A stretch of DNA of 45,556 bases from Mollicutes bacterium (GCA_003557505.1 PWOH01000069.1:1-45556), one strand, 5' to 3'. Shown: positions 6,902 to 37,517, numbered from the stretch's first letter. A program made the numbers and translations. The notes: generated from the letters alone by a model not told the origin.

Positions 6902-6924
6902 ACATTGACGATTGGGAGGGAATT

Positions 6925-9233: not shown

Positions 9234-9236
9234 AAA

Positions 9237-9264
9237 AATGCAAATCCCTCGGGATTTGCATTTT
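9237..9264. terminator. Bidirectional terminator between convergent genes
   Basis: AATGCAAATCCC-tc-GGGATTTGCATT with flanking A7 and T-run. Confidence 0.8.
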
Positions 9265-10180: not shown

Positions 10181-10298
10181 TATTTCACGCTCACTTTTAT
10201 AGGTTTTCTCCTATTATAGTATGAAATGCCTAGCTTTGCAATTTGTGTAGTTATAGAATTGAAAACTACGGTATAATGGAAACTAAGGAGTTGGTATC

Positions 10299-17689: not shown

Positions 17690-17704
17690 AAGAGAGGAGC
17701 ACGT

Positions 17705-18960: not shown

Positions 18961-21281
18961 AAAACCATCATGTCGTGAATCATCAAACGCCCTCTGTAGA
19001 TGGCAAAGGAATCATGATGGGCCGCGATGCATATAGTGATGATTTTGCCCATAGTGATGCCTTAATTATAAAAATCATGCGTTCTCCGCACGCTTTCGCA
19101 AAGATTGTATCGATCGATACACGGCGTGCTGAAGAAATTCCTGGAGTTGAATTAATTCTTACACATAAGGATTTTAAGCGTAATGCGTATACACGTGCTG
19201 GTCAGGGTTATCCTGAACCATCACCACACGATAAGTTTGTATTAGATGAATATGTCCGCCATGTCGGTGATGAAGTTTGCGCGGTCGCAGCGGTTGACGT
19301 TAAAACCGCAGAGAAAGCCTTACATGCAATCAACGTTGAATATGAAGTGTTAACGCCTGTATTAGACTTTGAAACAGCGAAAGACAATGACCAAAGGGTT
19401 CATCCTGAAGCAGACATATATGAAATGTTTCCCATTGGCTTTGACCCGAAACGCAATCTTGCGGCGGCTTATCACATGGAAATTGGTGATGTTGAACAAA
19501 CTTTACGTGACAGTGATGTCGTTGTCAAAGAATCATTTTATACGACTCCGCAAGCGCATGCGATGATGGAGCCTCATACTGTCAATGCACGCATTGATTA
19601 TAACGATCGCTTGTTGATCTATTCATCAACGCAAACGCCTTTCCATGTCCGTAGAATACTTTCACAAGCCTTGGAAGTCCCTTTGCGAAAAATACGTGTC
19701 ATTAAACCTCGTGTTGGGGGTGGCTTCGGCGGGAAACAAGCCTTACATGGCGAAATGCTTTGTGCGGCTGTAACGCTTAGAACCGGCAAACCATCAAAAG
19801 TCATTTTTACCCGACAAGAAGTGTTTGAATCCACGTATTCAAGACACCCAATGCGGATTGATTTACGGATCGGTGCAATGAAGGATGGTCGGATTACAGC
19901 AATAGATTGTTACGGGTTGAGCAACACCGGTGCGTATGGAGAGCATGCACTCACCGTCTTTATGGTAACCGGTTCAAAAGTCTTACCGCTTTACAACAAA
20001 GTGGAAGCGGTCCGTTTCCATGGTGATGTGGTCTACACAAATCACACGCCTGCCGGCGCATTCCGTGGATATGGAGCGATTCAAGGCAATTTTGCCTTAG
20101 AAAGTATTATTGATATGCTGGCTGAGAAACTTGATATCGACCCTATTGAACTGCGTATGAAAAACATGATTAAAGAAGGCGAAACATCTAAGATTTTTGA
20201 AGTGATGGGCGAAGGAACTGAAGGGACCGCAATGGATATGGAATCCTGTAAACTCGATTATTGTCTGAATCGTGGGTTAGCACTTAGTAAATGGAATAAG
20301 ACCTATCCACGTCAAATGATATCTGATGATAAAGTGCGTTCAGTAGGTATGGCTATCGCCATGCAAGGCAGTGGGATTCCTTTTATTGACATGGGCGCTG
20401 CAACCATAAAACTGAATGATGATGGTTTTTATAACTTAACGGTTGGTGCGACTGAAATCGGCCAAGGGAGTGATACAATTCTTGTCCAGATTGCCGCAGA
20501 GGCATTAATGACTGAAGTCAGTAATGTTGCTGTGTATTCATCGGATACTGATTTGACACCTTTTGATACAGGTGCATATGCTTCAAGTACGACGTATGTC
20601 AGTGGCAATGCGGTTTTAAAGGCTGCCACAAAATTGCGGGAAATGATGATTGAAGAAGCAGCGAGAGTCTTACAGTGTGACTCGGATGCAATTACTTTTG
20701 ATGGTATAACATTCACCGATGATAAAACCGATAGTATCAGCCTAAAAGATTTATCTAATAAACTGTACTATAACGACGAACAAAAACAATTAACTGCCAC
20801 CGATTCTTATGTTGGGCACAAGTCACCACCGCCATTTATGGCTGGCTTTATTGATGTTGAAGTTGACCTTTGCACTGGGGAGTTTGACATCCTCAATTAC
20901 ACGAGTGTTGTTGATTGTGGGACTACAATCAATCCGATGTTGGCGCGTGGTCAAATCGAAGGTGGTGTTGTCCAAGGCATCGGCATGGCAACTTATGAAG
21001 AAACCCATCATAACAAGAAAGGACGTCTTATTACCAATAGTTTTCTAAACTATAAAATTCCTACAACCAAAGAGATTCTTAAGCTGACAACAGAATTTGC
21101 TGAAAGCTATGAAGAAAGTGGACCTTATGGTGCCAAGTCAGTCGGTGAAATCGGTATTGACACCCCACCAGCCGCTTTAGCCAATGCAATTTATAACGCA
21201 ACGGGTGTCCGCATTACTAAACTACCTATTACCCCTGAAAAAATACTTCAGGGTATAAAAGAAAAGGAGAATAAACGATGA
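18957..21281 (+). CDS. Xanthine dehydrogenase family molybdopterin-binding subunit (set 1)
   Basis: GGGFGGKQALHGEM, GAFRGYGAIQ, TEIGQGSDT, YGAKSVGEIG; ATG at 18957 (ATGA overlap with FeS gene) preferred over ORF-track start 18894. Confidence 0.95.
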   Translation: MKNHHVVNHQTPSVDGKGIMMGRDAYSDDFAHSDALIIKIMRSPHAFAKIVSIDTRRAEEIPGVELILTHKDFKRNAYTRAGQGYPEPSPHDKFVLDEYVRHVGDEVCAVAAVDVKTAEKALHAINVEYEVLTPVLDFETAKDNDQRVHPEADIYEMFPIGFDPKRNLAAAYHMEIGDVEQTLRDSDVVVKESFYTTPQAHAMMEPHTVNARIDYNDRLLIYSSTQTPFHVRRILSQALEVPLRKIRVIKPRVGGGFGGKQALHGEMLCAAVTLRTGKPSKVIFTRQEVFESTYSRHPMRIDLRIGAMKDGRITAIDCYGLSNTGAYGEHALTVFMVTGSKVLPLYNKVEAVRFHGDVVYTNHTPAGAFRGYGAIQGNFALESIIDMLAEKLDIDPIELRMKNMIKEGETSKIFEVMGEGTEGTAMDMESCKLDYCLNRGLALSKWNKTYPRQMISDDKVRSVGMAIAMQGSGIPFIDMGAATIKLNDDGFYNLTVGATEIGQGSDTILVQIAAEALMTEVSNVAVYSSDTDLTPFDTGAYASSTTYVSGNAVLKAATKLREMMIEEAARVLQCDSDAITFDGITFTDDKTDSISLKDLSNKLYYNDEQKQLTATDSYVGHKSPPPFMAGFIDVEVDLCTGEFDILNYTSVVDCGTTINPMLARGQIEGGVVQGIGMATYEETHHNKKGRLITNSFLNYKIPTTKEILKLTTEFAESYEESGPYGAKSVGEIGIDTPPAALANAIYNATGVRITKLPITPEKILQGIKEKENKR

Positions 21282-21916
21282 ATAAACAACAATTTCTGAA
21301 ATTTGCAACGCATATTATTTTCTTTGGAGCCCTTTGGGGACTCTTAGAAGCAACTCTGGGATTTTTTCTGCACATGATTCCTGTTCCATTTATTGCCGGC
21401 AGTGTAATGTTTCCAATTGCCATGGTCTTATTGATTACTGCGTATAAACGTGTGCCTAATCGACAAACATTGCTTTATATCGCATTGGTTGCTGCGGCGA
21501 TAAAATCGGTGAATCTTTTATCGCCATTGCCACACTTTAGTGTCATCAATCCGATGATTGCAATGATTGTTCAGAGTCTTGTTGTGTTTGGAACCATCGG
21601 ATTTTTATCCAAAAAGCCACACCCCACAATGATTACTGCCATCCTCATCACGACTTTGGCGTGGCGTGTCATATTTATTGCCTGGCAAAGTCTTTTAATT
21701 GCTTCACCTATTGTGTTTTTCAGTCCTCACCTTGCAAGTTTACAGGCATTTAGTAACTTCGTCATCATTGAAGGGGCACTTAGTGCGGTCATTGGGATAG
21801 CCTTTGTTAGTGCACTTCATTATCTAGCGCCACATAATAAAATCAGGGTTGCTTTAAAACCGTTTTATGCCCTCAGTATACTGATGGTTGCCATAACGTT
21901 GTCATATCTACTATAA
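21278..21916 (+). CDS. Uncharacterised polytopic membrane protein within the operon (possible transporter or ECF S-component-like)
   Basis: About 6 hydrophobic segments in 212 aa; ATGA overlap with the Mo-subunit gene. Confidence 0.6.
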   Translation: MNKQQFLKFATHIIFFGALWGLLEATLGFFLHMIPVPFIAGSVMFPIAMVLLITAYKRVPNRQTLLYIALVAAAIKSVNLLSPLPHFSVINPMIAMIVQSLVVFGTIGFLSKKPHPTMITAILITTLAWRVIFIAWQSLLIASPIVFFSPHLASLQAFSNFVIIEGALSAVIGIAFVSALHYLAPHNKIRVALKPFYALSILMVAITLSYLL

Positions 21917-21945
21917 AACCTACAACAGGAAAAGGATTGAGATCA

Positions 21946-22788
21946 ATGAATAATATTTACGAAACGATCATTTCATTTAAAAAACAAGGCAAAGATGCCG
22001 TATTAATTACCGCTGTTGATAAAACTGGGGAAGGCCCTGTGGACGTTGGCAAGAAATTGCTAGTCGGTGAAGATGGGTCCATGATTGGCACGGTCGGCGG
22101 GGGTTCATTAGAATATCATGCAGTCGATAAAGCGAAACGTTTGTTCAAGACACGTGAAAATGCCTTGGAGAGGTACTTGTTAAATGAAGGGAAGGTAACG
22201 CCAAATGTTAAGACACTTCCAATGGTCTGTGGTGGTGTGGTTACGTTGTTTTATGAATTTATTGGTGCCAAAGAATATGTTTATTTATTTGGCGCAGGTC
22301 ATGTATCTCAAGCATTAGCGAATGTACTAAAGACAATGGACTTTCATTTAACGGTGATTGACGACCGTGAAGCAGTCATTGAGAAATTTCAAGGTGCCAA
22401 CCGTAAAGTCCAACAATCCTTTGCGGACTTTATCGATCAAGAGCCCATCAAAGAAAACAGTTTTATTGTAGTGTGCACCCCCAATCATCAATATGATTAT
22501 CACGTGATAAATAAAGTTTTGGAACGCGAGCTTCAGCCAAAATATATGGGTATGCTGTGTTCACTTAAAAAATTACGAGAATACATTGATAAAACGTATG
22601 AAACATTTGGAACAGATGTAGACTTGAAAAATTTCTATTCTCCCATTGGTTTAGATATCGGTGGCGGCTCACCAGAAGAAATTGCGATTTCTATTTCTGC
22701 GGAAATGCTTGCTATTGCACATGGTAAAAGCGGGCACTCGCATATGAGGGAGCAAGCCGATGATAAGCATCGTTACTGGGAAGATTAA
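21946..22788 (+). CDS. XdhC/CoxI family Mo-hydroxylase maturation protein
   Basis: VGGGSLEYHAVDKA, MVCGGVVTLFYE, YLFGAGHVSQALANVLKTMDFHLTVIDDRE, GLDIGGGSPEEIAISISAEMLA; ATG at 21946 preferred over TTG at 21937. Confidence 0.92.
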   Translation: MNNIYETIISFKKQGKDAVLITAVDKTGEGPVDVGKKLLVGEDGSMIGTVGGGSLEYHAVDKAKRLFKTRENALERYLLNEGKVTPNVKTLPMVCGGVVTLFYEFIGAKEYVYLFGAGHVSQALANVLKTMDFHLTVIDDREAVIEKFQGANRKVQQSFADFIDQEPIKENSFIVVCTPNHQYDYHVINKVLERELQPKYMGMLCSLKKLREYIDKTYETFGTDVDLKNFYSPIGLDIGGGSPEEIAISISAEMLAIAHGKSGHSHMREQADDKHRYWED

Positions 22789-23236
22789 CGGCGGAAAGAC
22801 AACCAAGTTAAAATCATTATATGATGAGTCCAAAATTGGTGATGGGTTCATCAGTCTCAAAACAATGCAAGATAACCACCCTATCGCTTACCATATGTAT
22901 CGTTTAACAACCGAAGAGAAACATTTGTTTATCTGTCGTGATAAAACGTGCAAGCCTGAAATGCTCATTCATGAGACGATTGGACCTTATCACATTAGTG
23001 CATCTACTTATGCGTGGGTCAATGAAATCATTCAGGAATTGATTGAACAAAAAATAGAACCACTTTATTTTGATGAAGTCGGGTTACTGGAAGTCAATAA
23101 AAAAGGTTTTTATCCCCTCATCAAAACAATGATTGATTCTGAATTAGATGTTGTTTTTGTGGTTCGAAAAGACCTGTTAAAACGCTTTGAAAAAACTTTT
23201 GGTATCTCGAACTATACACTCAGAAAGGTGGAGTGA
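22760..23236 (+). CDS. P-loop NTPase (THEP1-like nucleoside-triphosphatase)
   Basis: MISIVTGKINGGKTTKL Walker A-like; PLYFDEVGLLEVNKKGFYPL Walker B-like; 29-nt overlap with XdhC-family gene. Confidence 0.65.
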   Translation: MISIVTGKINGGKTTKLKSLYDESKIGDGFISLKTMQDNHPIAYHMYRLTTEEKHLFICRDKTCKPEMLIHETIGPYHISASTYAWVNEIIQELIEQKIEPLYFDEVGLLEVNKKGFYPLIKTMIDSELDVVFVVRKDLLKRFEKTFGISNYTLRKVE

Positions 23237-23238
23237 CC

Positions 23239-24537
23239 ATGTATGATTTACGCATTATCAATGGGAAGGTCTATCAAGAAAATCAATTTCATGAGGTCAA
23301 TGTTTATATTGACAACCAGGTGTTTTCGCGCACTACAAAAGACCGGCTTCCCGCTAAAGAAACCATCGATGCCCAAGGCAACTTGATCATCCCTGGTATC
23401 ATCGATCCCCATGTCCATTTTGCGTTGGATCTGGGGCACGTGGTATCTCGCGATGATTTCAAAAGTGGTTCCACGGCCGGTGTTTACGGCGGAGTAACAA
23501 CTTTTATCGACTTTTTGGACCCTACCGATCATGCCGCGGATTTAAAAAAAGCTTACGCAAAACGGCGTAAACAAGCAGAAGAATCCTTGGTTGACTATGC
23601 CTTTCATGCGACGCTAAAAAACCCACGCGATGACCTTGAACATTACATTCAAACGATGAAGACGTTAAACATTTCAACCTTAAAATTATTCACGACTTAC
23701 TCTGATTCTAACCGACGTACGGATGATGAAAACATTGCAACATTGTTAAGGCTACAAAGTCGCTATGAGTTTCTGATATTAGCACATGTAGAAAATGATG
23801 CGATGATTACCTTAGATCCTACATACACACATCTTGATTTACCGATCAGCCGTCCTTCATTGAGTGAAACCTCAGAAGCGTTGAAGTTGGAACGACTTGT
23901 TGATGAAACGAGGGGAGAATTATACATGGTTCACACCAGTAGCGGTGAAACCATTGAACAGCTAAAAAGTTTCTTTCCCAGTTTACTGAATACGCGGTTT
24001 CACATAGAGAGTTGTCCGCAATATTTTTCCTTCACTTCTGAAATGTTAACGGGAGAAAACGGCCATCTGTATACTTTTGCGCCACCGCTTAGAAGTACTA
24101 GCGAACGGAAGTTATTATTTAAACATATCGGTGATGTCGCAACCATCGGAACCGATCATTGTGCCTTTAACAAGGCCGATAAGGAAAACAAACCTTTAGT
24201 GAAAATGCCACTTGGCGTTGGTGGGATTGAACAGTCTTTTGATATTATGTTTGCGTTATTTGGAGAATCCGTTATTCCTAAAATGACAAAAAATGTCGCT
24301 GCCAGGATGAAACTTAGTAATAAAGGGGAAATCAAAGAAGGCTTTGATGCTGATTGTTTTATCTATTCTTTAAATCCACGCACACTTTTTGATACCCATA
24401 ATACTACTGATTATAACATTTACACAGGCATCAATGTTGCAGGGAAAGTCATTACGACGATTGCACGTGGCGATATAGTGATGCTTGATGGGCAAGTTAA
24501 ACCACGTAAGGGGAGATGTTTACATGAGATTACCTAA
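23239..24537 (+). CDS. Dihydropyrimidinase/hydantoinase/allantoinase family amidohydrolase
   Basis: IIPGIIDPHVHF, STLKLFTTY (candidate carboxylated Lys), AHVEND, VHTSSGE, IGTDHCAF; 434-aa ORF. Confidence 0.85.
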   Translation: MYDLRIINGKVYQENQFHEVNVYIDNQVFSRTTKDRLPAKETIDAQGNLIIPGIIDPHVHFALDLGHVVSRDDFKSGSTAGVYGGVTTFIDFLDPTDHAADLKKAYAKRRKQAEESLVDYAFHATLKNPRDDLEHYIQTMKTLNISTLKLFTTYSDSNRRTDDENIATLLRLQSRYEFLILAHVENDAMITLDPTYTHLDLPISRPSLSETSEALKLERLVDETRGELYMVHTSSGETIEQLKSFFPSLLNTRFHIESCPQYFSFTSEMLTGENGHLYTFAPPLRSTSERKLLFKHIGDVATIGTDHCAFNKADKENKPLVKMPLGVGGIEQSFDIMFALFGESVIPKMTKNVAARMKLSNKGEIKEGFDADCFIYSLNPRTLFDTHNTTDYNIYTGINVAGKVITTIARGDIVMLDGQVKPRKGRCLHEIT

Positions 24538-25837
24538 AGCTATAATCAATGCGATGATTTATGATTATAAAAGTTTTTACCCAAAAGGCTATGTTATTTT
24601 TAGTGACACTATTATTGATTGTGGCCCAATGGAATCTTTTGATGATCAGGGCTTTGAAATCATTGATGGCACCGATATGTTGGTTATGCCTTCGCTGATT
24701 GTTGGCCATACCCATATTTATTCTACCTTCGCAAGAGGGTGGCTTAACAGTTTTAATTATGAAGGGTTTATGGACATTTTGGAAAAACAGTGGTGGCGTC
24801 TGGATAACGCTTTGCATAAAGATGCCATGTATTATAGTGGCATCGTTAACGCCATCGATCATTTAAAAAATGGGGTCACAACCCTCATAGATCATCATGC
24901 CTCTTCCGATGTGTATGGATCACTTTATACATTAAAAAAAGCCGTCACCGATACGGTCGGTTTGCGTGGATTATATGCATTTGAAACGTCTGATCGTTTC
25001 GATGTGAAGGCGTGTATACAAGAAAATGTGGAGTTTGCGGCGAAAAAATCCAATTTCCATAAAGGACTTTTCGGATTGCATGCGTCATTGTCACTAAGTG
25101 AAGAAACGTTAAAACAAGTTAAAGCCAATTTAGGAAGAAGCCCTATCCATATTCATGTTGCTGAGGATAAGTTAGATCAGGAAGACTGTTTAAAACGATA
25201 TGGTGAGCGTGTCATTGAACGGCTTGATCGTCATGGTTTATTGAATCCTGATAGCATTATCACCCATGCGCTTTTCATCGATGAAAATGAAGCGGATATC
25301 CTTAAAAAGCGACAATGTGTTGTTGCGCTCAATCCGAGTTCAAACATGAACAATGCTATTGATGTACCAAATTATAAATTACTGAAAGCTAAAGAGATTC
25401 CTGTCATTGTCGGTAATGACGGTATCTCTTCATCAATTACCACTGAATATCTCAATTTGTTTTATACGCAACATCTAAGAGAAAACCATCCCGGTGCTTT
25501 CACATTAAATGATTTAGCCACCATCATCGATGATACCTACGCTTATGTTAGCCGCCAACTGGATATCAAACTTGGTCGTTTTCAAACCGATTATGTTGCC
25601 GATATCATGATGGTGCCTTACGTCCCTCCAACGCCCATAAACAAAGACAATATACTTGGTCATCTCTTTTTTGGGATGTATAACAGTTTCAAACCCCATA
25701 CAGTATTCATTCAAGGTGAACGCGTACTTAATGCTTACAATGTCTCACCTTCTTTGATGAATACGTATCGTCAAGCCTCATCCCATGCGTTAAAGGTATG
25801 GGAAAAAATCAAAGAAGAATTGGGGGAAAAGTCATGA
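24524..25837 (+). CDS. ssnA: SsnA-like amidohydrolase
   Basis: LIVGHTHIYSTFARGW, LIDHHASSDV, IHIHVAEDKLDQEDCLKRYG, SSNMNNAIDVPNY, VGNDGIS; Yge/Ygf-like neighbourhood. Confidence 0.85.
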   Translation: MRLPKAIINAMIYDYKSFYPKGYVIFSDTIIDCGPMESFDDQGFEIIDGTDMLVMPSLIVGHTHIYSTFARGWLNSFNYEGFMDILEKQWWRLDNALHKDAMYYSGIVNAIDHLKNGVTTLIDHHASSDVYGSLYTLKKAVTDTVGLRGLYAFETSDRFDVKACIQENVEFAAKKSNFHKGLFGLHASLSLSEETLKQVKANLGRSPIHIHVAEDKLDQEDCLKRYGERVIERLDRHGLLNPDSIITHALFIDENEADILKKRQCVVALNPSSNMNNAIDVPNYKLLKAKEIPVIVGNDGISSSITTEYLNLFYTQHLRENHPGAFTLNDLATIIDDTYAYVSRQLDIKLGRFQTDYVADIMMVPYVPPTPINKDNILGHLFFGMYNSFKPHTVFIQGERVLNAYNVSPSLMNTYRQASSHALKVWEKIKEELGEKS

Positions 25838-26925
25838 AACTAACCACTACATTTGACGGTCTTTATCTAAGCAACCCACTGATGCCAGCGAGTGGTCCAC
25901 TTGTTGGTGATTTGGAAAAACTCTTATTTATGCGTGAGGAGGCGAATTGTGGGGCGGTGGTTACGAAAACAATATCCACAAAGTTACCGAAAATTCCCAA
26001 ACCATGTATCAAAGCGGGGAAAAACCTCATCATGAATTCTGAGTTATGGAGTGAACACGACTATAAAATCTGGCTTAATGATTTTTTACCAGGTTATCAA
26101 AAAAACAATGACCGACCGTTAATTATCTCTGTAGGATATTCACAAGAGGACATGGAAGTTTTAATCCCATTATTGGATGTTTATGCCGATGCATTTGAGA
26201 TTTCGACGCATTATGTCGGCACCGACCTTGAGCGTATTAAAGCGACTGTTTCGACCATTAGAAGCCATACAAAAAAGCCCTTTTACATGAAAATATCGCC
26301 CCATCTCCCTGACCCTGAAGGATTCGCAAAAGTGATTGCGGAGGCTGGAGCTAATGGGGTTGTGGCGATTAATTCATTGGGGCCTACCTTGAATATCAAT
26401 ATCAATAATCGCAAAATCGAATATGGCGCCGATGATGGCTATGTGTGGACCACCGGTCCAGTGATTAAACCACTGGCTTTGGCGACGGTCTATAAAATCA
26501 AACAAGCCGCCCCAAACTTAACAGTAATTGGCGTAGGAGGTATCACGTCCGCTGAAGATGTTTTGGAGTTTTTATTGGCTGGTGCGTCCGCAGTTCAAAT
26601 GCTTTCAGGTGCTTTGTTAAAGGGGAAACAGTTATATAAAAAAATCATTGATGATCTGCCGAAAACGCTTGATAAATATGGCTTTTCATCGATTGAGGAA
26701 GTAATTGAAACGTCGCTTAAAAATACGGTTTCCTATGATGAGAGACTCCCTGAACTTATCGAAGATAAATGTATAGAATGTATGTTGTGTGTGAAAACTT
26801 GTCCTTACTTTGCGATTGCTTTTAAGGATAGAATTACCTTTAATCCTGATCAATGTTTTTCTTGTGGGCTTTGTGTTTCCATTTGTCCAACCAATGCCAT
26901 TACGATGGAAGGGGTGGGCGAATGA
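25834..26925 (+). CDS. Dihydroorotate/dihydropyrimidine dehydrogenase (PreA)-like flavoprotein with C-terminal 2x[4Fe-4S] ferredoxin domain
   Basis: LSNPLMPASGPL; IGVGGITSAEDVLEFLLAGASAVQM; C-terminal CIECMLCVKTCPYFAIAF...CFSCGLCVSICP. ATG at 25834 (ATGA overlap). Confidence 0.85.
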   Translation: MKLTTTFDGLYLSNPLMPASGPLVGDLEKLLFMREEANCGAVVTKTISTKLPKIPKPCIKAGKNLIMNSELWSEHDYKIWLNDFLPGYQKNNDRPLIISVGYSQEDMEVLIPLLDVYADAFEISTHYVGTDLERIKATVSTIRSHTKKPFYMKISPHLPDPEGFAKVIAEAGANGVVAINSLGPTLNININNRKIEYGADDGYVWTTGPVIKPLALATVYKIKQAAPNLTVIGVGGITSAEDVLEFLLAGASAVQMLSGALLKGKQLYKKIIDDLPKTLDKYGFSSIEEVIETSLKNTVSYDERLPELIEDKCIECMLCVKTCPYFAIAFKDRITFNPDQCFSCGLCVSICPTNAITMEGVGE

Positions 26926-29021
26926 AAGAAAAGCAGAATATTTCGGTAGGCATTGACAATGTTGAAGCGGCGGATAAAATAGCGGGCTTGGCCAAATACA
27001 CATCTGATATTGTTATTGAAGGGATGCTGTATGCGAAAACAGTGCGCTCAACCATACCAAGAGGGACTATTCGAGAAATCAAGATTCCAACCCTGCCAAA
27101 AGGCTATTATACTGTCGATGCGACTGATATTCCCGGTGACAATATTGTCGGCATGTTGCGTGATGACTGGCCGGTATTTGCTGCGCACCATGTCAATCAT
27201 ATCGGTGAGCCGATCATGTTGATTGTCAGAGAAGACAAAGCAATCATTACTGAGATTGTCAATAAAATTACCATTACTTATGATGAAGCAGAACCAACGT
27301 TTGATTTTACCGATTCTTGTGAACAACTTTCTTTTCAAAAGGGCAATACCAAGAAAGCTTTTAAGGAAGCTAAAAAAATAATTGATTATACCTATGAAAC
27401 CGGCTACCAGGAACAAACTTACATCGAACCTCAAGGCTTTATTGGTTATCCCGAAAATGATGGCGTTACATTGATTGGCTCGATTCAATGTCCCTATTAT
27501 GTAAAACACGCAGTGATGCAGACGCTTGGTGCAAGCGAAGATTTAGTCCGTGTCATTCAAGCAACTGTCGGAGGTGCCTTTGGCGGGAAAGAAGAATTTC
27601 CTTCGCTGATGGCGTGTCAGTTGGCCGTAGCGATTCATAAAATTGCTCGACCGATTAAAATGATTTATGAACGCGAAGAAGACATGGAAGTGACCACCAA
27701 AAGACACCCTGCGAAAATCACAATGTCAGCCGCGATTGATGCAGACAATCGTGTGATGGCCATAAAAAGTCACGTTGGCCTCGACGGTGGAGCTTACATT
27801 GGATTATCCAAAGTCGTCTTATCACGTGGCATGCTTGCCTCCACCAACGCTTATACCATTGAAAACGTTACTGCACGTGGTGATGTCTACCGGACCAATA
27901 CGGTTCCCAATGGTGCTTTTCGTGGTTTTGGTGCCCCACAGATGATTTTTGCGATTGAAATGTTTATGCATCATATCGCCAAAGACTTAAATATTGATCC
28001 TTTAACATTTCGCAAGGCACACATGGTCAAACAAGGAGATCTAACCGCTACGAGCGGTGTCTTTAGAGACCCAGTTATTATGAACAGTATGCTTGAGGAA
28101 GTCCTCAAACAGTCAAATTATATTGAAAAAGTCAAACAATACCAACACCCTGAATCTAATAAAGGGATTGGCATGAGTTGGTTTTTACATGGGTTTGGGT
28201 TTACCGGTAGTGGTGAAAAAGACAAAATCAAAGCCCGCGTTCGTTTGAAAAAAGACGAACAGGACAATGTGCATATTTTAATCGCGGCTGTCGATATGGG
28301 ACAAGGCCCTAAAACAACAATGCGCAAACTCGTCGCTAATCTGCTGGACTATCCAATAGAAAAAGTTATATTCAATAATCCCGATACCCGTTATGTTCCT
28401 GACTCAGGGCCGACGGTCGCTTCACGGACCATGATGATTGTCGGAGGATTACTAGCCCGTGCGACTAAGAAACTCCAAGACCAATGGGTCGCGCATCAAG
28501 AAGTGGTAACGGAAGAATCCTACGAACAACCTTCCTATGTTCAGTGGGATAATGAGGCGATGCATGGTGATGCATATCCAGCCTATTCATGGGGCATTAA
28601 TGTGTGTGAAGTTGAAGTAGACCGACAAACCTATGAGGTCAGAGTGCGCAATATGTGGAATATCTATGATGTAGGAAAAGCCATTGATGAGCGTATTGTC
28701 CTCGGGCAAGCTGATGGTGGCCAAGCACAAGGCATTGGCTATGGGTATTTGGAAGTGATGAATCACCGTGAAGGTAAGATTATGCAAAAAAATATGACCG
28801 ATTATATTATTCCTACCGCCGCCGACACGCCACCAATGGAAAACACTTTAATGGACAATCCCTATCCGCTCGGACCTTATGGGGCGAAGGGCGTCGGTGA
28901 GTTAACGCTAGTGGGTGGTGCACCAGCCGTCGCCTTGGCAATTGAACAGGCCATCGGCAAAAAGGTCCATACTATTCCTGTGACCCCCGAGCGTATAATG
29001 GAGTTGATTGATAATGAGTGA
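26922..29021 (+). CDS. Xanthine dehydrogenase family molybdopterin-binding subunit (set 2)
   Basis: VGGAFGGKEEFPSLMACQ, NGAFRGFGAPQ, VDMGQGPKTT, YGAKGVGELT; ATG at 26922 preferred over ORF-track 26853. Confidence 0.95.
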   Translation: MKEKQNISVGIDNVEAADKIAGLAKYTSDIVIEGMLYAKTVRSTIPRGTIREIKIPTLPKGYYTVDATDIPGDNIVGMLRDDWPVFAAHHVNHIGEPIMLIVREDKAIITEIVNKITITYDEAEPTFDFTDSCEQLSFQKGNTKKAFKEAKKIIDYTYETGYQEQTYIEPQGFIGYPENDGVTLIGSIQCPYYVKHAVMQTLGASEDLVRVIQATVGGAFGGKEEFPSLMACQLAVAIHKIARPIKMIYEREEDMEVTTKRHPAKITMSAAIDADNRVMAIKSHVGLDGGAYIGLSKVVLSRGMLASTNAYTIENVTARGDVYRTNTVPNGAFRGFGAPQMIFAIEMFMHHIAKDLNIDPLTFRKAHMVKQGDLTATSGVFRDPVIMNSMLEEVLKQSNYIEKVKQYQHPESNKGIGMSWFLHGFGFTGSGEKDKIKARVRLKKDEQDNVHILIAAVDMGQGPKTTMRKLVANLLDYPIEKVIFNNPDTRYVPDSGPTVASRTMMIVGGLLARATKKLQDQWVAHQEVVTEESYEQPSYVQWDNEAMHGDAYPAYSWGINVCEVEVDRQTYEVRVRNMWNIYDVGKAIDERIVLGQADGGQAQGIGYGYLEVMNHREGKIMQKNMTDYIIPTAADTPPMENTLMDNPYPLGPYGAKGVGELTLVGGAPAVALAIEQAIGKKVHTIPVTPERIMELIDNE

Positions 29022-29490
29022 AAAAATATCGTTTGAATTAAATGGACAGTCAATCACAATCACGCTTTCACCCGATCATCGTTTTTTAGATGTGTTACGT
29101 AAACATTTAAATATTGTTGGGCCTAAAGAAGGGTGCGGTGAAGGTGAATGTGGTGCGTGTAGTGTCTTGATGGATGGTTATATTGTCCAAAGTTGTATCT
29201 TACCCCTTGGCAGTGTTCATGGTAAAAAAATCATGACCATTGAAGGCTACCGCGAAACGAAACGTTTTAAAGCATTACAAGACGCATTTTTAACTGAAGG
29301 CGCCTCTCAATGTGGGATTTGTACACCGGGCATGATTATGGCTACGGAGTATTTACTATCCCACAACCCTCATCCCACCGATGAGGAAATTCGTCATGGC
29401 TTGGCGGGTAATCTCTGTCGGTGTACCGGGTATAACATGATCATCAAAGCCATAAAAAGAGCCGCGAAAGAGGGTGAAGGCTTATGGTAG
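29014..29490 (+). CDS. Xanthine dehydrogenase family [2Fe-2S] subunit (set 2)
   Basis: GCGEGECGACSVLMDGYIVQSC; QCGICTPGMIM; GNLCRCTGY. Confidence 0.96.
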   Translation: MSEKISFELNGQSITITLSPDHRFLDVLRKHLNIVGPKEGCGEGECGACSVLMDGYIVQSCILPLGSVHGKKIMTIEGYRETKRFKALQDAFLTEGASQCGICTPGMIMATEYLLSHNPHPTDEEIRHGLAGNLCRCTGYNMIIKAIKRAAKEGEGLW

Positions 29491-30335
29491 AGAATAAGAT
29501 TCCCACATCCTATAATGAAGCCCTTAAGATTTTAGCTACTGGTAGTTATCAAGTGCTCAATGGTGGGACTGATCTGATGGTTCGCTACCGAGGCTGGTCA
29601 GAAACACGGGTAAAATTTAAAAAGAACATGCTTCATATTCATAATTTAGATGAACTGAATTATATAACCAGCAAGGATGAATATATTCACATTGGGGCCA
29701 CAACGACCCATGAAACAATATTGCATCATCCATTGATTCCTGAAATTATGAAAAAATGTCTGCGTGTGTTCGCCTCACCGGCTATCCGCAACATGGGGAC
29801 GTTAGTAGGCAATATCGGCAACGCTTCTCCGGCTGGTGATGCAGTATTAATTGCCTATTTACTTGAAGCCAGGCTTGTAGTAGAAAGCCTGCGTCATCAA
29901 AGAGAAGTCCCAATTGAGGATTTTATTAAAGGACCGGGATCGATTGCGCTTGCGCCTGATGAAATCATTAAAGAAATCTATTTTAAAAAGCTTAATTTTA
30001 ATGCCACGTATTTTACAAAAGTTGGCGGGCGACAATCCGATGCCATCTCGAAGGTTATGTTTGCGGCCGGATACCGTTTGGACGCAGACAAAATTGTCGA
30101 TATAAGAATAGCGATCGGGGCTGTTAGTCCCACTATCATTAAAGATAAAACCATTGAAAAATCCATAAAAGGATACACCTTGAAAAACTTATCTAACCAA
30201 AAATCGATGATTTTATCTCAATATGCGGCCCATATCAACCCAATTGATGATCAACGCTCCAACAAACACTACCGTAAAAAAGTAGCGCTTAATCTTTTAG
30301 AAGCCTTTTTAAATGACATCATTACAAGGAGTTAA
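29484..30335 (+). CDS. Xanthine dehydrogenase family FAD-binding subunit (set 2)
   Basis: LNGGTDLMVRYR; IRNMGTLVGNIGNASPAGDAV; 7-nt overlap with FeS gene. Confidence 0.93.
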   Translation: MVENKIPTSYNEALKILATGSYQVLNGGTDLMVRYRGWSETRVKFKKNMLHIHNLDELNYITSKDEYIHIGATTTHETILHHPLIPEIMKKCLRVFASPAIRNMGTLVGNIGNASPAGDAVLIAYLLEARLVVESLRHQREVPIEDFIKGPGSIALAPDEIIKEIYFKKLNFNATYFTKVGGRQSDAISKVMFAAGYRLDADKIVDIRIAIGAVSPTIIKDKTIEKSIKGYTLKNLSNQKSMILSQYAAHINPIDDQRSNKHYRKKVALNLLEAFLNDIITRS

Positions 30336-30339
30336 TGGG

Positions 30340-32061
30340 ATGGATAAAAAAACACTAATGAAAAAAGCCAAGGGCGAAATGCCTGCACAAACTGTCTTTA
30401 AAAACGGTCGAGTGATTAATGTCTATACCCATGTCATCGAAACCGTGGATATTGCGGTAGAAGACGGGATCATTATAGGGATTGGGACGTATAAGGGTGA
30501 AGAAGAGATTGATCTTCAAAACCGTTATGTCTCGCCGGGATTTCTTGATGGTCATGTTCATATTGAATCATCGATGGTAACGCCTCCACAATTCGCTAGT
30601 ATTATCTTACCAAAAGGCACCACTACGATTATCGCAGATCCGCATGAAATTGCGAATGTGAGTGGCGTTGCCGGGATAGAATTTATGATTAATGCCGCAA
30701 AAAATAGTTTGATGGATGCTTATTTTATGCTTCCATCGAGTGTCCCCGCCACAACGTTTGAAACCGCTGGTGCAAAGATAGGTCCCGAAGATATTCTTGC
30801 TTTGAAAGATAAAGACAACGTTTTAGGCTTAGGTGAAGTTATGAATTATCCCGGCGTTTTATCCGGTGAAAAAGACATTCATGAAAAAATCCAGATTATG
30901 CAAGGAAGACCAATTGACGGTCATGCTCCTAGTGTGATTGGCAATGAACTGAATGCCTATATCCTTGCGGGTGTACAAAGTGATCACGAATGCTCAAGTG
31001 TAGAGGAAATGGAAGACCGTTTGCGCAAAGGCATGTATGTGCATTTACGTGAAGGCTCAGTCACCCGTAATGTCGCAACACTGCTAAAAGGTATAACGCC
31101 TCATAATATGCGTCGAACATTATTTTGTACGGATGATAAACATCCTGAGGATATCAAGCGAGAAGGTCATATTAATTACAACGTGAACTTAGCCATTAAG
31201 ACTGGTATTGATGCGATTGATGCCATTACAATGGCGACTCTCAATGCGGCGGAATGTTATGGTTTAAAACACCTTGGTGCGATTGCCCCAGGAAAACAAG
31301 CAGACTTTTTCACCTTTAATTCACTTGAATCAATCACTCCGATTGATGTTTATAAAAAAGGGACGTTAGTTGCAAGGGAAGGGAAACTATTGATCACGCC
31401 ACAAGCATCAATGGCGCATAACGATGTTCAAGACAGCGTTCATATTGATGCTAAAGCTATAGATTTTACATTGAAACTCTCACAAGATGATGTCCGAGTA
31501 ATCGGACTGATTAAAAACAACATTACAACGAATCATTTAATTCGTAAGGTCAGTGTTGCTCAGGGTGTTTATCACAATAATCCTGAGGATGATATTTTAA
31601 AACTCGCCGTTATCGAACGTCATAAACAGACTAACAATGTCGGTCTTGGCCTTGTTGAGGGATTTGGTATCAAAAATGGCGCCTTGGCAATGACGATTGC
31701 CCATGATTCCCATAATCTTGTGATCGTTGGTGATTCTGATGATGCCATGCGCAAAGCTATGGAGAAAATTATCGCAATTAAAGGTGGCATTGTACTAGTC
31801 AAAGATAATAAAGTAGTGCATGCCTTACCGCTTGAAATTAGTGGAATTATGACTGCTTCATCGCCCGATGATGTTGCTAAAATGCTAGAAAAAATGAAAC
31901 AAACCACAAGAGAAATGGGTCTGAATAAAGCCATTGATGATCCGTTTATTCAGTTGGCTTTCTTATCGCTCCCCGTCATTCCAAAATTAAAACTAACCGA
32001 TCAAGGACTATTTGATGTTGAAACCTTTCAACATGTATCGATTGAATGTGATTCATCATGA
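30340..32061 (+). CDS. ade: Adenine deaminase
   Basis: YVSPGFLDGHVHIESSMVTPPQFA, GTTTIIADPHEIANV, IDGHAPSV, SDHECSS; about 574 aa. Confidence 0.93.
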   Translation: MDKKTLMKKAKGEMPAQTVFKNGRVINVYTHVIETVDIAVEDGIIIGIGTYKGEEEIDLQNRYVSPGFLDGHVHIESSMVTPPQFASIILPKGTTTIIADPHEIANVSGVAGIEFMINAAKNSLMDAYFMLPSSVPATTFETAGAKIGPEDILALKDKDNVLGLGEVMNYPGVLSGEKDIHEKIQIMQGRPIDGHAPSVIGNELNAYILAGVQSDHECSSVEEMEDRLRKGMYVHLREGSVTRNVATLLKGITPHNMRRTLFCTDDKHPEDIKREGHINYNVNLAIKTGIDAIDAITMATLNAAECYGLKHLGAIAPGKQADFFTFNSLESITPIDVYKKGTLVAREGKLLITPQASMAHNDVQDSVHIDAKAIDFTLKLSQDDVRVIGLIKNNITTNHLIRKVSVAQGVYHNNPEDDILKLAVIERHKQTNNVGLGLVEGFGIKNGALAMTIAHDSHNLVIVGDSDDAMRKAMEKIIAIKGGIVLVKDNKVVHALPLEISGIMTASSPDDVAKMLEKMKQTTREMGLNKAIDDPFIQLAFLSLPVIPKLKLTDQGLFDVETFQHVSIECDSS

Positions 32062-33305
32062 AATATGTCAGTCATTATGAATGTGTATTATGTGAAACAC
32101 GCTATCCCAAAACCTATACAGGCAATACCTGTGAACAATGTAGCGATCAAGGAATCCTTGATGTAATCTATGATTATGAGGCCATGAAAGAAACAGTAAC
32201 TTTGCAATATTTTAAGAATAATCCTAAACGATCGCTATGGCGCTATGCCCCGCTAATGAGTGTAGAGCTTAATGATTTTTCACAAACACTAATGGTGGGA
32301 TGGACACCACTATATCGGTCTTATAAACTTGCAAAATCACTAAATATAAACACGCTATATATTAAGGATGACGGTCTGAATCCCACCGGATCCCTAAAGG
32401 ATAGGGCCTCAGTGGTTGCGTGTATGAAAGCCATTGAACAAAACAATCGCATTATTGCCTGTGCCTCAACTGGTAACGCCGCCTCTTCACTGGCTGGGAA
32501 TGCGGCACGTCTTGGGTTAAAAACTGTGATTTTTGTTCCTAAGCGTGTGCCTAAAGGAAAATTGGCACAACTGTATAGTTATGGTGCAGAAGTCATTAAA
32601 ATCGATGGTGATTATCGCGAGGCTTACGCACTATCCAAATCAGCGATTAATACTTTTGGATGGATGAACCGTAATGCCGCAATCAATCCACATTTAGTAG
32701 AAGGTAAAAAAACTGTTGCGTTAGAAATTGCTGAACAATTAGACTTTAACCCACCAGATTGGGTGGTGTGCAGTGTTGGAGATGGGTGTACGATTGCGGG
32801 GGTTTATAAAGGGTTTTACGATTTGATACAACTTGGTCTTATTGAAAAAATACCGCGTTTACTTGGCGTTCAAAGCGAAGGGTGTAACCCGATTTACAAG
32901 GCATTTAAATATGCTAGACCATTGGAGCTAGCATTAGAAAATACGATTGCGGATAGTATTGCCGTGGGTATTCCGCGCAATCCTTTAAAAGCGCTAAAAG
33001 CGATAGAAGCGTCCGGAGGCGCCATGATGAGTGTGAGTGATAACGCCATTTTGAAGGCAGGCAAGATTCTATCATCCCAGGAAGGCATATTTAGTGAACC
33101 TGCCTCGGCGGCTGCTTTAGCCGGACTCATCAAAGCACTGGAACAAAACATCATTACTTCCGATGAAAGGGTTACGATTATCAATACTGGCAATGGGTTA
33201 AAAGATACAGATGCTTACACAGCACAGATGGAGGAGATTCCTTTAATGAAAAATGATCTTGAAACATTTAAAGAGTATTTACAGCGGAAGGGGAGAAAAT
33301 TATGA
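32058..33305 (+). CDS. Threonine synthase-like fold-type II PLP enzyme with N-terminal zinc ribbon
   Basis: CVLCETRY...CEQCSDQG; PLP lysine motif NPTGSLKDRAS; CASTGNAASSLAG. Confidence 0.8.
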   Translation: MKYVSHYECVLCETRYPKTYTGNTCEQCSDQGILDVIYDYEAMKETVTLQYFKNNPKRSLWRYAPLMSVELNDFSQTLMVGWTPLYRSYKLAKSLNINTLYIKDDGLNPTGSLKDRASVVACMKAIEQNNRIIACASTGNAASSLAGNAARLGLKTVIFVPKRVPKGKLAQLYSYGAEVIKIDGDYREAYALSKSAINTFGWMNRNAAINPHLVEGKKTVALEIAEQLDFNPPDWVVCSVGDGCTIAGVYKGFYDLIQLGLIEKIPRLLGVQSEGCNPIYKAFKYARPLELALENTIADSIAVGIPRNPLKALKAIEASGGAMMSVSDNAILKAGKILSSQEGIFSEPASAAALAGLIKALEQNIITSDERVTIINTGNGLKDTDAYTAQMEEIPLMKNDLETFKEYLQRKGRKL

Positions 33306-34666
33306 AACAGATACCTTTTGGTCCTAATTATGATGAAATGCTTCATCCAGAAAAAATTCCAAAGTCCCTCCGACAAAAAGTATTAAATGCTAAATCTGAT
33401 GAATTTAATCCATTAAATTTATTCAATATTACCTGGCGAAAACCGGATGGCGATATTAACCGTGTCGTCTTACCGAAGGCACTTACAGGTATTGAAGCAA
33501 ACATTATTGTGCTTGTGGGCAAAGATTTTCCCAGTGGATCTCATAAAGTCGGCCCAGCTTATTCAACACTTATTGAGGGTGCTGTGGATGGCACCATCAT
33601 ACCAGGAAAACATCATATCTTAGGCCCTTCAACGGGTAATTTCGGCATAGGCGTCGCTTATATTTGTCATTTAATGAAATATGATGCAACAGTCATTATG
33701 CCCGATACAATGAGTAAAGAACGTTACGCCAGAATAAAGCATTATGGTGCAAATCTTGAATTGACACCTGGAACGGAATCCGATGTTATCTTAACATTGG
33801 AGAAGACGCATGAGTTAAATAAAAAAGCGGGAAATGTAGCGCTCGCTCAGTTTGAATTGATGCCAAATTATCGTTTCCATCGTCATGTGACTGGCTACAG
33901 TGCCATTGAAGCGGTTCAAGGCATTGGAAATTCACGGATTGCTTTGTTTGCATCAGCGCCTGGTAGTGCAGGCACACTGGCAGCGGGAGACCAAATTAAG
34001 CAAGCGTTTCCCGAAGCAAAAATCGCCGCACTAGAACCGTATGAATGTTCCACATTAGCGGACGGTGGCAGAGGTCAACATCGCATTGAAGGCATAGGCG
34101 ATAAGATGTGTACGTTAATTCATAACGTATTGAATACCGATTTTATCGCGTTGATTTCAGATGAAGATGCGGTGAAAGGATTAAAAATTCTTCGTGATGG
34201 TAAGTCAGTCTTAGAAAACTACGGGATTAAACCTTCAACAGTTGATGCATTGCGTGATGTTTTTGGTGTGAGTGGTGTTTGTAATGTTTTAGGCGCGATT
34301 AAGATGGCGAAATACTTACGGCTTGGTCCTGAGGAGAACATTGTGACAGTCGCTACCGATGGTTTTGATCGTTATGACAGTGTGATTGAGAGCCTGGATA
34401 AGCGTACGCTGGAAATCAATGATAGTGTGCTCAATCGTTGGTATCAAGACATCTATTTAAAAGCGGATACGTTTAATATTCTCGATACAAGAAGTGATAA
34501 AGCCAAACAACGACTATTTAAACAAAAGGAAGATGATTGGTTGAAATTCGGGTATGAAAAATCATACCTTGATGCAATGAAATCGATGAAATTTTGGGAT
34601 GATGAATATGCCAAACTTCACCATTATAATGAAATGATTCAAAATATGCGGAAAGAGGATGATTAA
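33302..34666 (+). CDS. Fold-type II PLP-dependent enzyme of uncertain substrate
   Basis: [16 protein letters not shown] (PLP lysine), [39 protein letters not shown] overlap with the ThrC-like gene. Confidence 0.75.
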
Positions 34667-34668
34667 GC

Positions 34669-35883
34669 ATGGACTTTAATAAAGTACTTATTCAAGCGAA
34701 AAAGTATCAAACGGAGATTAATGCGTTTTTGCGAGACATGGTCAGAATTCCTTCGGAATCATGCGAAGAAGGCAAAGTTATCGAGCGAATCAAACAAGAA
34801 ATGGAAAAGGTTGGCTTTGATAAGATTGAAATCGATAAGATGGGCAATATCTATGGCTATATCGGAAAGGGTTCAACGTTGATTGCGATGGATGCTCATG
34901 TTGATACGGTAGGCATTGGTGAAAAGAAGAACTGGACATTTGATCCTTATGAAGGATTTGAAGATGACCGCTATATTGGTGGACGTGGCACGTCTGACCA
35001 AGAAGGTGGTATGGCATCAATGGTTTATGCCGGTAAAATCATCAAAGATTTAAAACTTGAGGAAGATTATACGTTATTAGTGACTGGAACGGTACAAGAA
35101 GAAGATTGTGATGGACTTTGTTGGCAGTATATTATCGAAGAAAACAATATCCGGCCTGAATTTGTGGTTATTACTGAACCGACCTCTCTCAATATTTATC
35201 GTGGACAGCGTGGTCGTATGGAGATCCAAGTTTCGACTTCAGGCATTTCTTGTCACGGGAGTGCGCCGCATCGCGGTGATAATGCGATTTTTAAAATGGG
35301 ACCGATTCTTAATGAACTTCAAACCTTGCATCAGCAATTAAAAGATGATCCGTTTTTAGGCAAAGGGACACTGACAGTGAGTGAAATATATTCTCAATCT
35401 CCATCACGGTGTGCGGTTGCGGATGGCTGCAGTATTTCTATTGATCGCCGTTTAACACATGGAGAAACACATGAAGGAGCCCTTGAGGAAATCCGTAATT
35501 TGCCTTCGGTTAAAGCCGCAAAAGCGACGGTGGAAATGTATCGTTATGAAAAACCTGCCTACACAGGATTAGTCTATCCGACCGATTTATATTTTCCAAG
35601 TTGGCTCATCCCTGAAAACCATGATGCAACGCAGACATTGAAGGAAGGTTATGAGGGATTATTTAAAGATAGTCCCCTCATCGATAAATGGACCTTTTCA
35701 ACCAACGGTGTATCTATCATGGGCCGTTACGACATTCCTTGTATTGGTTTTGGCCCCGGTCATGAAGAAGAAGCGCATGCACCCAATGAAAAAACCGAAA
35801 AAGAACATCTTTGGAAAGCCGCCGCTATGTATGCGGTCATTCCTACCCTATACGTTAGAAACAAAAAGGAGAAAAACAAATGA
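34669..35883 (+). CDS. ygeY: YgeY-like M20 metallohydrolase
   Basis: [52 protein letters not shown]; adjacent to YgeW-like gene. Confidence 0.85.
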
Positions 35884-36863
35884 AACCACTTTTTAAAGGC
35901 AAACATTTTATTACACTCGAAGAATGGGAAAAATCAGAAATTGATAAACTTTTAGAAGTTTCTTTAGAATTGAAAGAAAAGTTCAAAACGAATGTATTAA
36001 CCGACTTTCTCAAAAATAAAACGTCTTTCCTCATGTTTTTTGAACAATCAACCCGGACCAGAAATTCCATGGAAGCCGGGATCGCACAACTCGGCGGTCA
36101 CGCAAACTTTTTGGATACTTCAACCATGCAAATATCCCATGGAGAGACCGGAAAGGATACCGCCATTATATTATCGAGTTATGGACACGGCATTGCATGT
36201 CGGAACTGTTTTTGGACCCTCGGCAACAAATTTATCCGTGAAATGGCTCAGCATGCCACAGTGCCTGTGATGAACCTTCAATGTGATTTATATCATCCTT
36301 TCCAAGGCTTGGCTGATCTGATGACAATCCAAGAAGTCAAACCAAAGTTAAACAACTTAAAAGTGTCGATTATCTGGGCTTACGCAACATCTCACAAAAA
36401 ACCTATCAGTGTCCCCTTAACCCAAAGTTTATTATTCCCGCGGTATGGCATGGATGTAGTTTTAGCGCATCCTAAGGGTTATGAACTGCCTGAATGGGTC
36501 ATCGCCAAAGCGAAACAAAATGCCCAGGAAAATGGTGGACGTTTCACAGTTACCAATGATATGGAATCAGCGTATAAAGATGCGGATATTGTGATTCCGA
36601 AAAACTGGGGGTCTTGGGCGTCCAATACGTCCGATGACGTCATCGATGAAGTCTTAGAAGCCAATAAGCATTGGAAATGTAGTGAAAAAATGATGAAACT
36701 TGCTAAAAAAGATGTTAAGTATATGCATGCGTTGCCAGCTGACCGTGGCAATGAAGTTGAAGATAGTGTCATTGATGGGCCGCAATCGATTGTCTATCAA
36801 GAAGCGGAAAACCGATTACATACTGCCAAAGCTGTCATGGCAATGACAATGGGTGATAAATAA
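35880..36863 (+). CDS. ygeW: YgeW-like (knotted) carbamoyltransferase
   Basis: [75 protein letters not shown]. Confidence 0.85.
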
Positions 36864-36864: not shown

Positions 36865-36901
36865 AAAAACGATGACTACACAATTTGTAGTCATCGTTTT
36901 T
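36865..36901. terminator. Strong bidirectional terminator at the end of the operon
   Basis: Perfect 16-bp stem AAAAACGATGACTACA / TGTAGTCATCGTTTTT with 5-nt loop. Confidence 0.9.
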
Positions 36902-37389
36902 CAATAAAGCGTCTTATTTTTTGATTGGTACTCTTCAAATAATTTCAGGCACTCATCCCGATGCTTTTCTTTAATACTCAATACACTGTGATCGCTGCGA
37001 CCTTTTTCGATAAAAGAATAGATGAAATCATCACGAAATCCAATCGCATCGGCATCTTCAGGCCGACAGCCATAAACAAGGGTTTTAATGTTTGCCCATA
37101 TGATGGCGCCTAAACACATTGGGCATGGGTAAGCTGTGGTATATAGCACACACCCACTTAAATCATGGGAGTTTTTCTTTTGTCCTGCCATTCTAATGGC
37201 GTTAACTTCTGCATGGGCTGTTGGGTCATGATCGCCTAACACAGAATTTGATGAAACGCTTAAAATGGTGCCATCCGCATCAATAATAGCAGCACCAAAA
37301 GGCCCGCCCAAATCTTCATTCATTGTCTTTTTTGCTTGCTTGATTGCTTGTTGCATAATCGATTGGTCATTATGAAGCGTTTTAATCAT
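36901..37389 (-). CDS. guaD: GuaD-like guanine/nucleoside deaminase
   Basis: HAEVNAIR and PCPMCLGAIIW zinc motifs; GGPFGAAI; DADAIGFRDDFIY. ATG at 37389 preceded by gaggtgatc. Confidence 0.75.
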   Translation of the reverse strand: MIKTLHNDQSIMQQAIKQAKKTMNEDLGGPFGAAIIDADGTILSVSSNSVLGDHDPTAHAEVNAIRMAGQKKNSHDLSGCVLYTTAYPCPMCLGAIIWANIKTLVYGCRPEDADAIGFRDDFIYSFIEKGRSDHSVLSIKEKHRDECLKLFEEYQSKNKTLY

Positions 37390-37517
37390 GATCACCTCAA
37401 TTCGGTTACACTTTATTATATCGTTATTTGCAAAAAAGCGCAATGAGTAGCCGTAATCTTAAATTAGCCATTCAATTTTGGGTAATGTATTGGTATAATA
37501 CAAATTGAGGCGATAGT

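What the first reader, a model, noticed from the sequence alone, without database searches (positions are those of the whole stretch)
32058..34666. Adjacent, translationally coupled pair of fold-type II PLP enzymes in place of YgeX
A zinc-ribbon ThrC-like protein and a second PLP protein (SGSHKVG lysine) overlap by 4 nt just before YgeY and YgeW. E. coli has YgeX (diaminopropionate ammonia-lyase) beside YgeY/YgeW, but from recall neither protein resembles YgeX. No homoserine pathway genes are nearby, so threonine synthesis is unlikely. The pair may perform or replace the amino-acid lyase step releasing ammonia and a keto acid, possibly as a complex.
Basis: inference. Interest (0 to 1): 0.62.

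Follow-up and report, generated by a model that had tools for sequence, protein, structure and literature searches.

The report
Two-enzyme exit of anaerobic urate breakdown
Two vitamin-B6 enzymes, one of them mislabelled 'threonine synthase', travel with the oxygen-free uric-acid breakdown genes of many sediment bacteria and probably do the last carbon step that E. coli does with a single different enzyme (YgeX); which of the two does what is still a guess.

Summary
The two genes are real. ThrC-like 'ThrCl' (32058-33305) and CysK-like 'PLP2' (33302-34666) overlap by ATGA and are genes 15 and 16 of an 18-gene operon (17132-36863) encoding the reductive urate pathway. ThrCl is not a threonine synthase: in six relatives read, the true thrC sits in a hom/thrB operon; 114 of 114 ThrCl orthologs lack a Ser and an Arg that all ThrC examined have; no homoserine dehydrogenase was found in this genome. 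Across 71 genomes of the order, the pair and YgeY occur together (all three in 48, none in 18) and YgeX occurs in none. 'Replaces YgeX' is not general: seven clusters in other Bacillota carry the pair plus YgeX, and two carry PLP2 plus YgeX without ThrCl. PLP2 is the constant partner; it is followed directly by L-serine ammonia-lyase genes (sdaAB) in 5 loci, and glyA lies nearby in 11. I propose that PLP2 turns 2,3-diaminopropionate into L-serine and ThrCl deaminates serine to pyruvate; the step assignment is inferred. Published transcriptomics of Hujiaoplasma nucleasis very probably shows this operon induced by DNA/RNA. It is a variant of a known pathway, hidden because a survey scored YgeX by PF00291 alone.

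The parts
32058..33305 (+). ThrCl: zinc-ribbon ThrC-like fold-type II PLP enzyme (415 aa); proposed amino-acid ammonia-lyase, not threonine synthase
33302..34666 (+). PLP2: CysK-like fold-type II PLP enzyme (454 aa), subfamily A; proposed beta-replacement or elimination enzyme acting on 2,3-diaminopropionate
34669..35883 (+). YgeY family hydrolase
   Evidence: TIGR03526 690.6 bits, cut-off 321.5
35880..36863 (+). OTC-like carbamoyltransferase in the YgeW slot (not a member of the knotted YgeW family)
   Evidence: TIGR03316 185 bits, cut-off 500; 34% to a true YgeW
30313..32061 (+). adenine deaminase
   Evidence: TIGR01178 628.7 bits, cut-off 472.5
26853..30335 (+). second xanthine-dehydrogenase-like Mo, FeS and FAD subunits
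   Evidence: below the equivalog cut-offs
25798..26925 (+). DHO-dehydrogenase-like flavoprotein with ferredoxin domain (UacX/PydA-like)
   Evidence: TIGR01037 151 bits
24485..25837 (+). SsnA-like amidohydrolase
   Evidence: NF005540 342.7 bits, cut-off 444
23233..24537 (+). HyuA/dihydropyrimidinase-like amidohydrolase
   Evidence: TIGR02033 211 bits, cut-off 393
17132..23236 (+). MocA-like protein, first xanthine-dehydrogenase-like FAD/FeS/Mo subunits, unknown orf, XdhC chaperone, NTPase
36901..37443 (-). nucleoside/guanine-deaminase-like protein, frequent convergent neighbour of the operon

Best explanation
The pair is the carbon-exit module of the reductive urate (purine) pathway in these anaerobes. 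Upstream genes reduce and open urate to 2,3-diureidopropionate, and YgeY plus the carbamoyltransferase strip the two ureido groups to leave 2,3-diaminopropionate (steps from published work on E. coli and C. difficile; gene matches shown here). The pair then handles diaminopropionate instead of, or alongside, YgeX. Most likely division of labour (inferred): PLP2, CysK-like, replaces the beta-amino group by water, giving L-serine plus ammonia; ThrCl, a threonine-synthase relative that has lost the Ser/Arg pair seen in every ThrC examined, acts as a serine-type ammonia-lyase giving pyruvate plus ammonia. Serine could also leave through GlyA (glycine and methylene-THF) or SdaAB (pyruvate) where those genes join the cluster. 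The confidence given is for the exit-module claim; the step assignment alone is about 0.3.
For: Shown: 18-gene operon with reductive-urate genes. In 71 genomes of the order PLP2, ThrCl and YgeY are all present in 48 and all absent in 18, YgeX over cut-off in 0. ThrCl is not ThrC: separate hom-thrC-thrB operons in six relatives, ThrCl and those ThrC separated by a 100/100 branch, Ser and Arg of SVNPxRxEGQKT replaced by Ala/Gly and Leu/Met in 114 of 114, no homoserine dehydrogenase found. Serine link: PLP2 followed directly by sdaAB-sdaAA in L120, L157, L159, L163, L164 (L120 and L159 genes over cut-off); glyA within 8 kb in 11 of 155 PLP2 loci against about 0.9 by a crude chance estimate; one cluster with PLP2B, SdaAB, GlyA, YgeY and OTC has no ThrCl within 20 kb on either side. 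RidA genes were found only at YgeX loci (3 of 9 against 0 of 146), as if the pair did not release free aminoacrylate. Folds: PLP2 nearest CysK structures, ThrCl nearest ThrC, then threonine/serine deaminases. Expression: the Hujiaoplasma nucleasis operon is very probably the cluster reported as induced by DNA/RNA.
Against: No member of either family found here has a measured activity. Seven clusters carry the pair plus YgeX, so the pair may do something additional. L157, L159 and L163 carry ThrCl together with SdaAB, so a serine-lyase ThrCl would be redundant there. glyA and sdaAB adjacency covers few lineages, and both genes also serve general metabolism. PLP2 relatives occur without purine genes. 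Nothing here tells L- from D-diaminopropionate. SsnA-like and HyuA-like matches are below their curated cut-offs.
Confidence: 0.5

Rival explanations
1. ThrCl alone is the functional YgeX analogue (diaminopropionate ammonia-lyase to pyruvate), and PLP2 is a helper, for instance a racemase or a beta-replacement enzyme for diaminopropionate of the other configuration.
For: ThrCl is missing in the two genomes that have PLP2 plus YgeX; the ThrCl fold lies near serine/threonine deaminases and serine racemase; [quoted passage not shown]
Against: ThrCl and YgeX coexist in 7 loci; PLP2, YgeY and OTC occur without ThrCl, YgeX or SdaAB in the stretch read of L141, L143, L144; E. coli YgeX is reported equally active on both isomers, so a racemase beside it would be idle.
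Confidence: 0.25
2. The pair is not the diaminopropionate step at all: it converts another amino acid made in purine or serine/glycine metabolism, and diaminopropionate is removed by an enzyme that I did not recognise.
For: Coexistence with YgeX; pair or PLP2 in molybdenum-hydroxylase clusters without YgeY or carbamoyltransferase nearby (L131, L136, L113, L133-L139); PLP2 relatives outside purine clusters.
Against: Order-wide gene-by-gene co-occurrence with YgeY and no YgeX; the operon otherwise lacks any enzyme for the last step.
Confidence: 0.2
3. ThrCl is the organism's threonine synthase and its place in the operon is accidental.
For: Best and only over-cut-off thrC match in the genome.
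Against: the genome is 91% complete, so the missing hom is not proof by itself.
Confidence: 0.04

Closest known systems
Reductive uric acid pathway of E. coli and C. difficile (XdhD, YgfK/UacX, SsnA, HyuA, YgeW/UacY, YgeY, YgeX; PMC12507026)
   Same: Same kind of gene set and probably the same steps up to 2,3-diaminopropionate; the window uses the UacX-like reductase
   Different: No YgeX and no knotted YgeW; a ThrC-like plus CysK-like pair and an OTC-like carbamoyltransferase fill those slots
Diaminopropionate ammonia-lyase YgeX (NF006058, TIGR03528)
   Same: Fold-type II PLP superfamily, same pathway position in this order
   Different: Curated scores 54 and 24 bits against 276; two genes instead of one; coexists with YgeX in some Bacillota
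Threonine synthase ThrC
   Same: Nearest fold and sequence of ThrCl (34-38% identity to solved ThrC in the structural alignments)
   Different: Ser/Arg of SVNPxRxEGQKT lost, GDGC in place of GNAGN, separate clade, not in a homoserine operon
Cysteine synthase CysK / O-ureidoserine synthase
   Same: Nearest fold of the PLP2 core (about 30% identity)
   Different: 138 bits against a cut-off of 351; N- and C-terminal extensions; a separate CysK-like gene lies on C62
'Xanthine-degradation loci' of Ca. Izemoplasmatales (PMC8289736, Extended Data Fig. 9)
   Same: Most probably the same chromosomal locus, judged by its xanthine dehydrogenase and purine deaminase genes
   Different: No function for a PLP pair is discussed in the main text searched

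Membership tests
Reductive urate gene cluster | SsnA with molybdenum hydroxylase, YgfK/UacX, HyuA, YgeW/UacY and YgeY in one neighbourhood | tested here: met
   All present as homologs in 17132-36863; SsnA and HyuA below curated cut-offs, carbamoyltransferase outside the YgeW family
Reductive urate gene cluster | YgeX, diaminopropionate ammonia-lyase | tested here: not met
   No match over cut-off in the genome or in 71 genomes of the order
YgeX (diaminopropionate ammonia-lyase) | NF006058 score over 276 bits | tested here: not met
   54 and 24 bits
YgeX (diaminopropionate ammonia-lyase) | Turnover of 2,3-diaminopropionate | not testable with these tools
   Needs an enzyme assay
Threonine synthase | TIGR00260 score over cut-off | tested here: met
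   220 bits, cut-off 167; the model is broad
Threonine synthase | Ser and Arg of SVNPxRxEGQKT (substrate-phosphate contacts, from recall) | tested here: not met
   Ala/Gly and Leu/Met in 114 of 114 ThrCl; present in five solved ThrC and six hom-operon ThrC
Threonine synthase | Homoserine pathway in the organism | tested here: not met
   No PF00742 match in the 91%-complete genome
Cysteine synthase CysK | TIGR01139 score over cut-off | tested here: not met
   PLP2 137.7 bits against 350.95
Knotted carbamoyltransferase YgeW | TIGR03316 score over cut-off | tested here: not met
   185 bits against 500; relative G038 carries a true YgeW, 765 bits
OrtAB, 2-amino-4-ketopentanoate thiolase | Small OrtA plus ThrC-like OrtB beside a diaminopentanoate dehydrogenase | tested here: not met
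   That layout lies elsewhere, on C95 (gene names from recall); neither member of the pair is a small OrtA-like protein

The most novel reading that the evidence does not exclude
Anaerobic urate breakdown has a second, serine-based exit: a CysK-like enzyme converts 2,3-diaminopropionate to L-serine without releasing aminoacrylate, and a repurposed threonine synthase, SdaAB or GlyA takes serine onward, so that urate feeds one-carbon metabolism directly in sediment Izemoplasmatales and in Moorella-type anaerobes.
Probability: 0.3. Interest if true: 0.72.

Novelty: new variant of a known kind. Interest (0 to 1): 0.52.

Why it matters
The reductive urate pathway was worked out only in 2025, and its commentary leans to a recent origin in the gut. 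The same kind of gene set with a different terminal pair in sediment Izemoplasmatales and in Moorella- and Desulfosporosinus-type anaerobes suggests that it is not confined to guts and has at least two terminal solutions. A survey that scored YgeX by Pfam PF00291 would have counted either member of the pair as YgeX. A family that scores as threonine synthase here is something else, which affects predictions of amino-acid auxotrophy in uncultured bacteria.

Tried and rejected
OrtA/OrtB: rejected; that layout is elsewhere in the genome. Threonine synthase: rejected. Straight replacement of YgeX: too simple. Overlap as evidence for a complex: rejected because the whole operon overlaps. A tree with YgeX and OrtB rows was unusable because of very long branches; rebuilt without them. 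A plasmid search for PLP2 gave only Rhizobium and Bosea relatives at about 35% identity and no functional name. Literature searches found no description of the pair. The 2025 Nat Microbiol paper on C. sporogenes was not held. Several region requests failed on a one-base length error and were repeated.

Full report
WHAT IS THERE. The two ORFs exist at the stated places: 32058-33305 and 33302-34666, + strand, sharing ATGA. Both are PALP fold-type II PLP proteins. They are genes 15 and 16 of an 18-gene run from 17132 to 36863 in which nearly all genes touch or overlap: a MocA-like gene, two xanthine-dehydrogenase-like molybdenum hydroxylases, XdhC, an NTPase, a HyuA/dihydropyrimidinase-like and an SsnA-like amidohydrolase, a UacX/PydA-like flavoprotein, adenine deaminase, the pair, YgeY and a carbamoyltransferase. 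This is the kind of gene set of the reductive uric acid pathway worked out in E. coli and C. difficile (PMC12507026), the UacX variety. The genome is a 1.53-Mb, 91%-complete draft; the closest named relatives are Mollicutes/Izimaplasma metagenome bins.

CORRECTIONS. The last gene is not YgeW by the curated models (185 bits against a cut-off of 500). The overlap is ordinary for this operon. A locus laid out like ornithine-pathway ortAB, which also has a ThrC-like subunit, is separate.

NOT A THREONINE SYNTHASE. ThrCl passes the general thrC model, but (i) homoserine dehydrogenase was not found in the genome; (ii) in Moorella, Syntrophomonadaceae and others that also have ThrCl, a different ThrC (38-41% identical) sits in a hom/thrB operon (neighbours named by sequence); (iii) at the motif SVNPxRxEGQKT, Ser and Arg are present in all five solved ThrC and the six hom-operon ThrC but are Ala/Gly and Leu/Met in 114 of 114 ThrCl orthologs. 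From recall, these residues bind the substrate phosphate; I found no held paper to cite. (iv) ThrCl and ThrC fall on the two sides of a 100/100 branch.

CO-CONSERVATION. A scan of GTDB contigs for PLP2 found 350 stretches that encode a relative; the best 80 loci were read. Of the 44 with at least 6 kb on both sides, 42 have ThrCl, 39 YgeY, 42 the carbamoyltransferase, 42 a molybdenum hydroxylase and 4 YgeX. In 71 genomes of the order at least 80% complete, PLP2 (or its subfamily B), ThrCl and YgeY are all present in 48 and all absent in 18; Fisher p values are below 1e-11, but genomes are related, so these are descriptive. Several of the exceptions lie at contig ends (G009, G014, G017, G031); G040 is a real one. 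YgeX over cut-off: 0 of 71.

WHERE THE SIMPLE STORY FAILS. Among 155 PLP2 loci read, nine have a YgeX-like gene; seven of these also have ThrCl, and in two genomes (G073, G079) no ThrCl ortholog exists in the genome held. So ThrCl seems dispensable beside YgeX, PLP2 does not, and the pair is not a strict substitute. Three operons (L141, L143, L144) have PLP2, YgeY and the carbamoyltransferase without ThrCl, YgeX or SdaAB in the stretch read. PLP2 falls into at least three subfamilies by similarity: A (window), B (488 aa, next to a true knotted YgeW in G038) and C.

SERINE LINK. In L120, L157, L159, L163 and L164, PLP2 is followed at once by sdaAB and sdaAA; the genes of L120 and L159 score over cut-off as iron-sulphur L-serine ammonia-lyase. 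These are at least two different arrangements. glyA lies within 8 kb of PLP2 in 11 of 155 loci against about 0.9 expected from a crude density estimate, not corrected for relatedness. The G201 cluster has PLP2B, SdaAB, GlyA, YgeY and the carbamoyltransferase, and no ThrCl within 20 kb on either side. A ridA gene lies near YgeX in 3 of 9 loci and near PLP2 in none of the 146 others.

MECHANISM. Shown: location, conservation, absence of YgeX in the order, loss of ThrC signatures, intact PLP motifs in both proteins. From published pathway work: YgeW and YgeY leave 2,3-diaminopropionate. Inferred: PLP2, whose model (pLDDT 86) is closest to cysteine and beta-cyanoalanine synthases, does a beta-replacement with water to L-serine; ThrCl, whose model (pLDDT 91) is closest to ThrC and then to threonine/serine deaminases, deaminates serine to pyruvate. 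The assignment of steps could be otherwise; I give it about 0.3, and about 0.5 to the pair being the diaminopropionate exit module.

EXPRESSION. Its copy of the operon is 18 genes in the same order. An ORF count puts its first gene at index 184 with a 60-aa threshold (171-188 with other thresholds); HF295_00920 would be gene 184 and HF295_00920 to HF295_01005 is 18 tags if tags step by five. The paper reports that cluster as induced by DNA plus RNA. The match is an inference: the figure was not readable.

NOVELTY. The locus was very probably drawn before as a 'xanthine-degradation locus' (PMC8289736). I found no text on the pair. The 2025 survey scored YgeX by PF00291, which the pair also matches, so it would hide this variant. 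I file it as a new variant of a known pathway, not a new kind of system.

Noticed in passing
L184 (G040:C133), 6079-7504: ThrCl (with an internal stop) is followed directly by a short stretch matching the carbamoyltransferase; PLP2, YgeY and the rest of the carbamoyltransferase are missing, as if deleted together.
   Followed up: partly
L183 and L098 (G036): One genome has a decayed subfamily-A PLP2 beside ThrCl and an intact subfamily-B PLP2 beside a YgeY split over two frames, perhaps a replacement in progress.
   Followed up: partly
L109, L110 (Rhizobium and Bosea plasmids): A PLP2 relative (about 35% identity) near M20 peptidase and TauE/SafE genes (RidA also in Bosea); possibly a lyase for a sulphur-containing amino acid in aerobes.
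   Followed up: no
L158, L173, L175, L180: PLP2-like genes near a creatinase-like M24 gene and an FAD protein, in some also a LarA-like gene, without purine genes; function unknown.
   Followed up: no
L188 (Moorella, G072:C12), 3479-5097: A third ThrC-like protein (33% to ThrCl) sits beside a ridA gene, with a DauR-like regulator and a transporter close by; looks like another amino-acid lyase that would be annotated as threonine synthase.
   Followed up: no
L133-L135 and L137-L139: Subfamily-C PLP2 next to SsnA-like and molybdenum-hydroxylase genes without ThrCl, YgeY or a carbamoyltransferase in the stretch read; several also have a NuoG-like and an aldehyde-ferredoxin-oxidoreductase-like gene nearby.
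   Followed up: no
L097 (G038), 7997-11354: Subfamily-B PLP2 sits between a DauR-like regulator and a true knotted YgeW, so the two PLP2 subfamilies here go with two different carbamoyltransferase types.
   Followed up: partly
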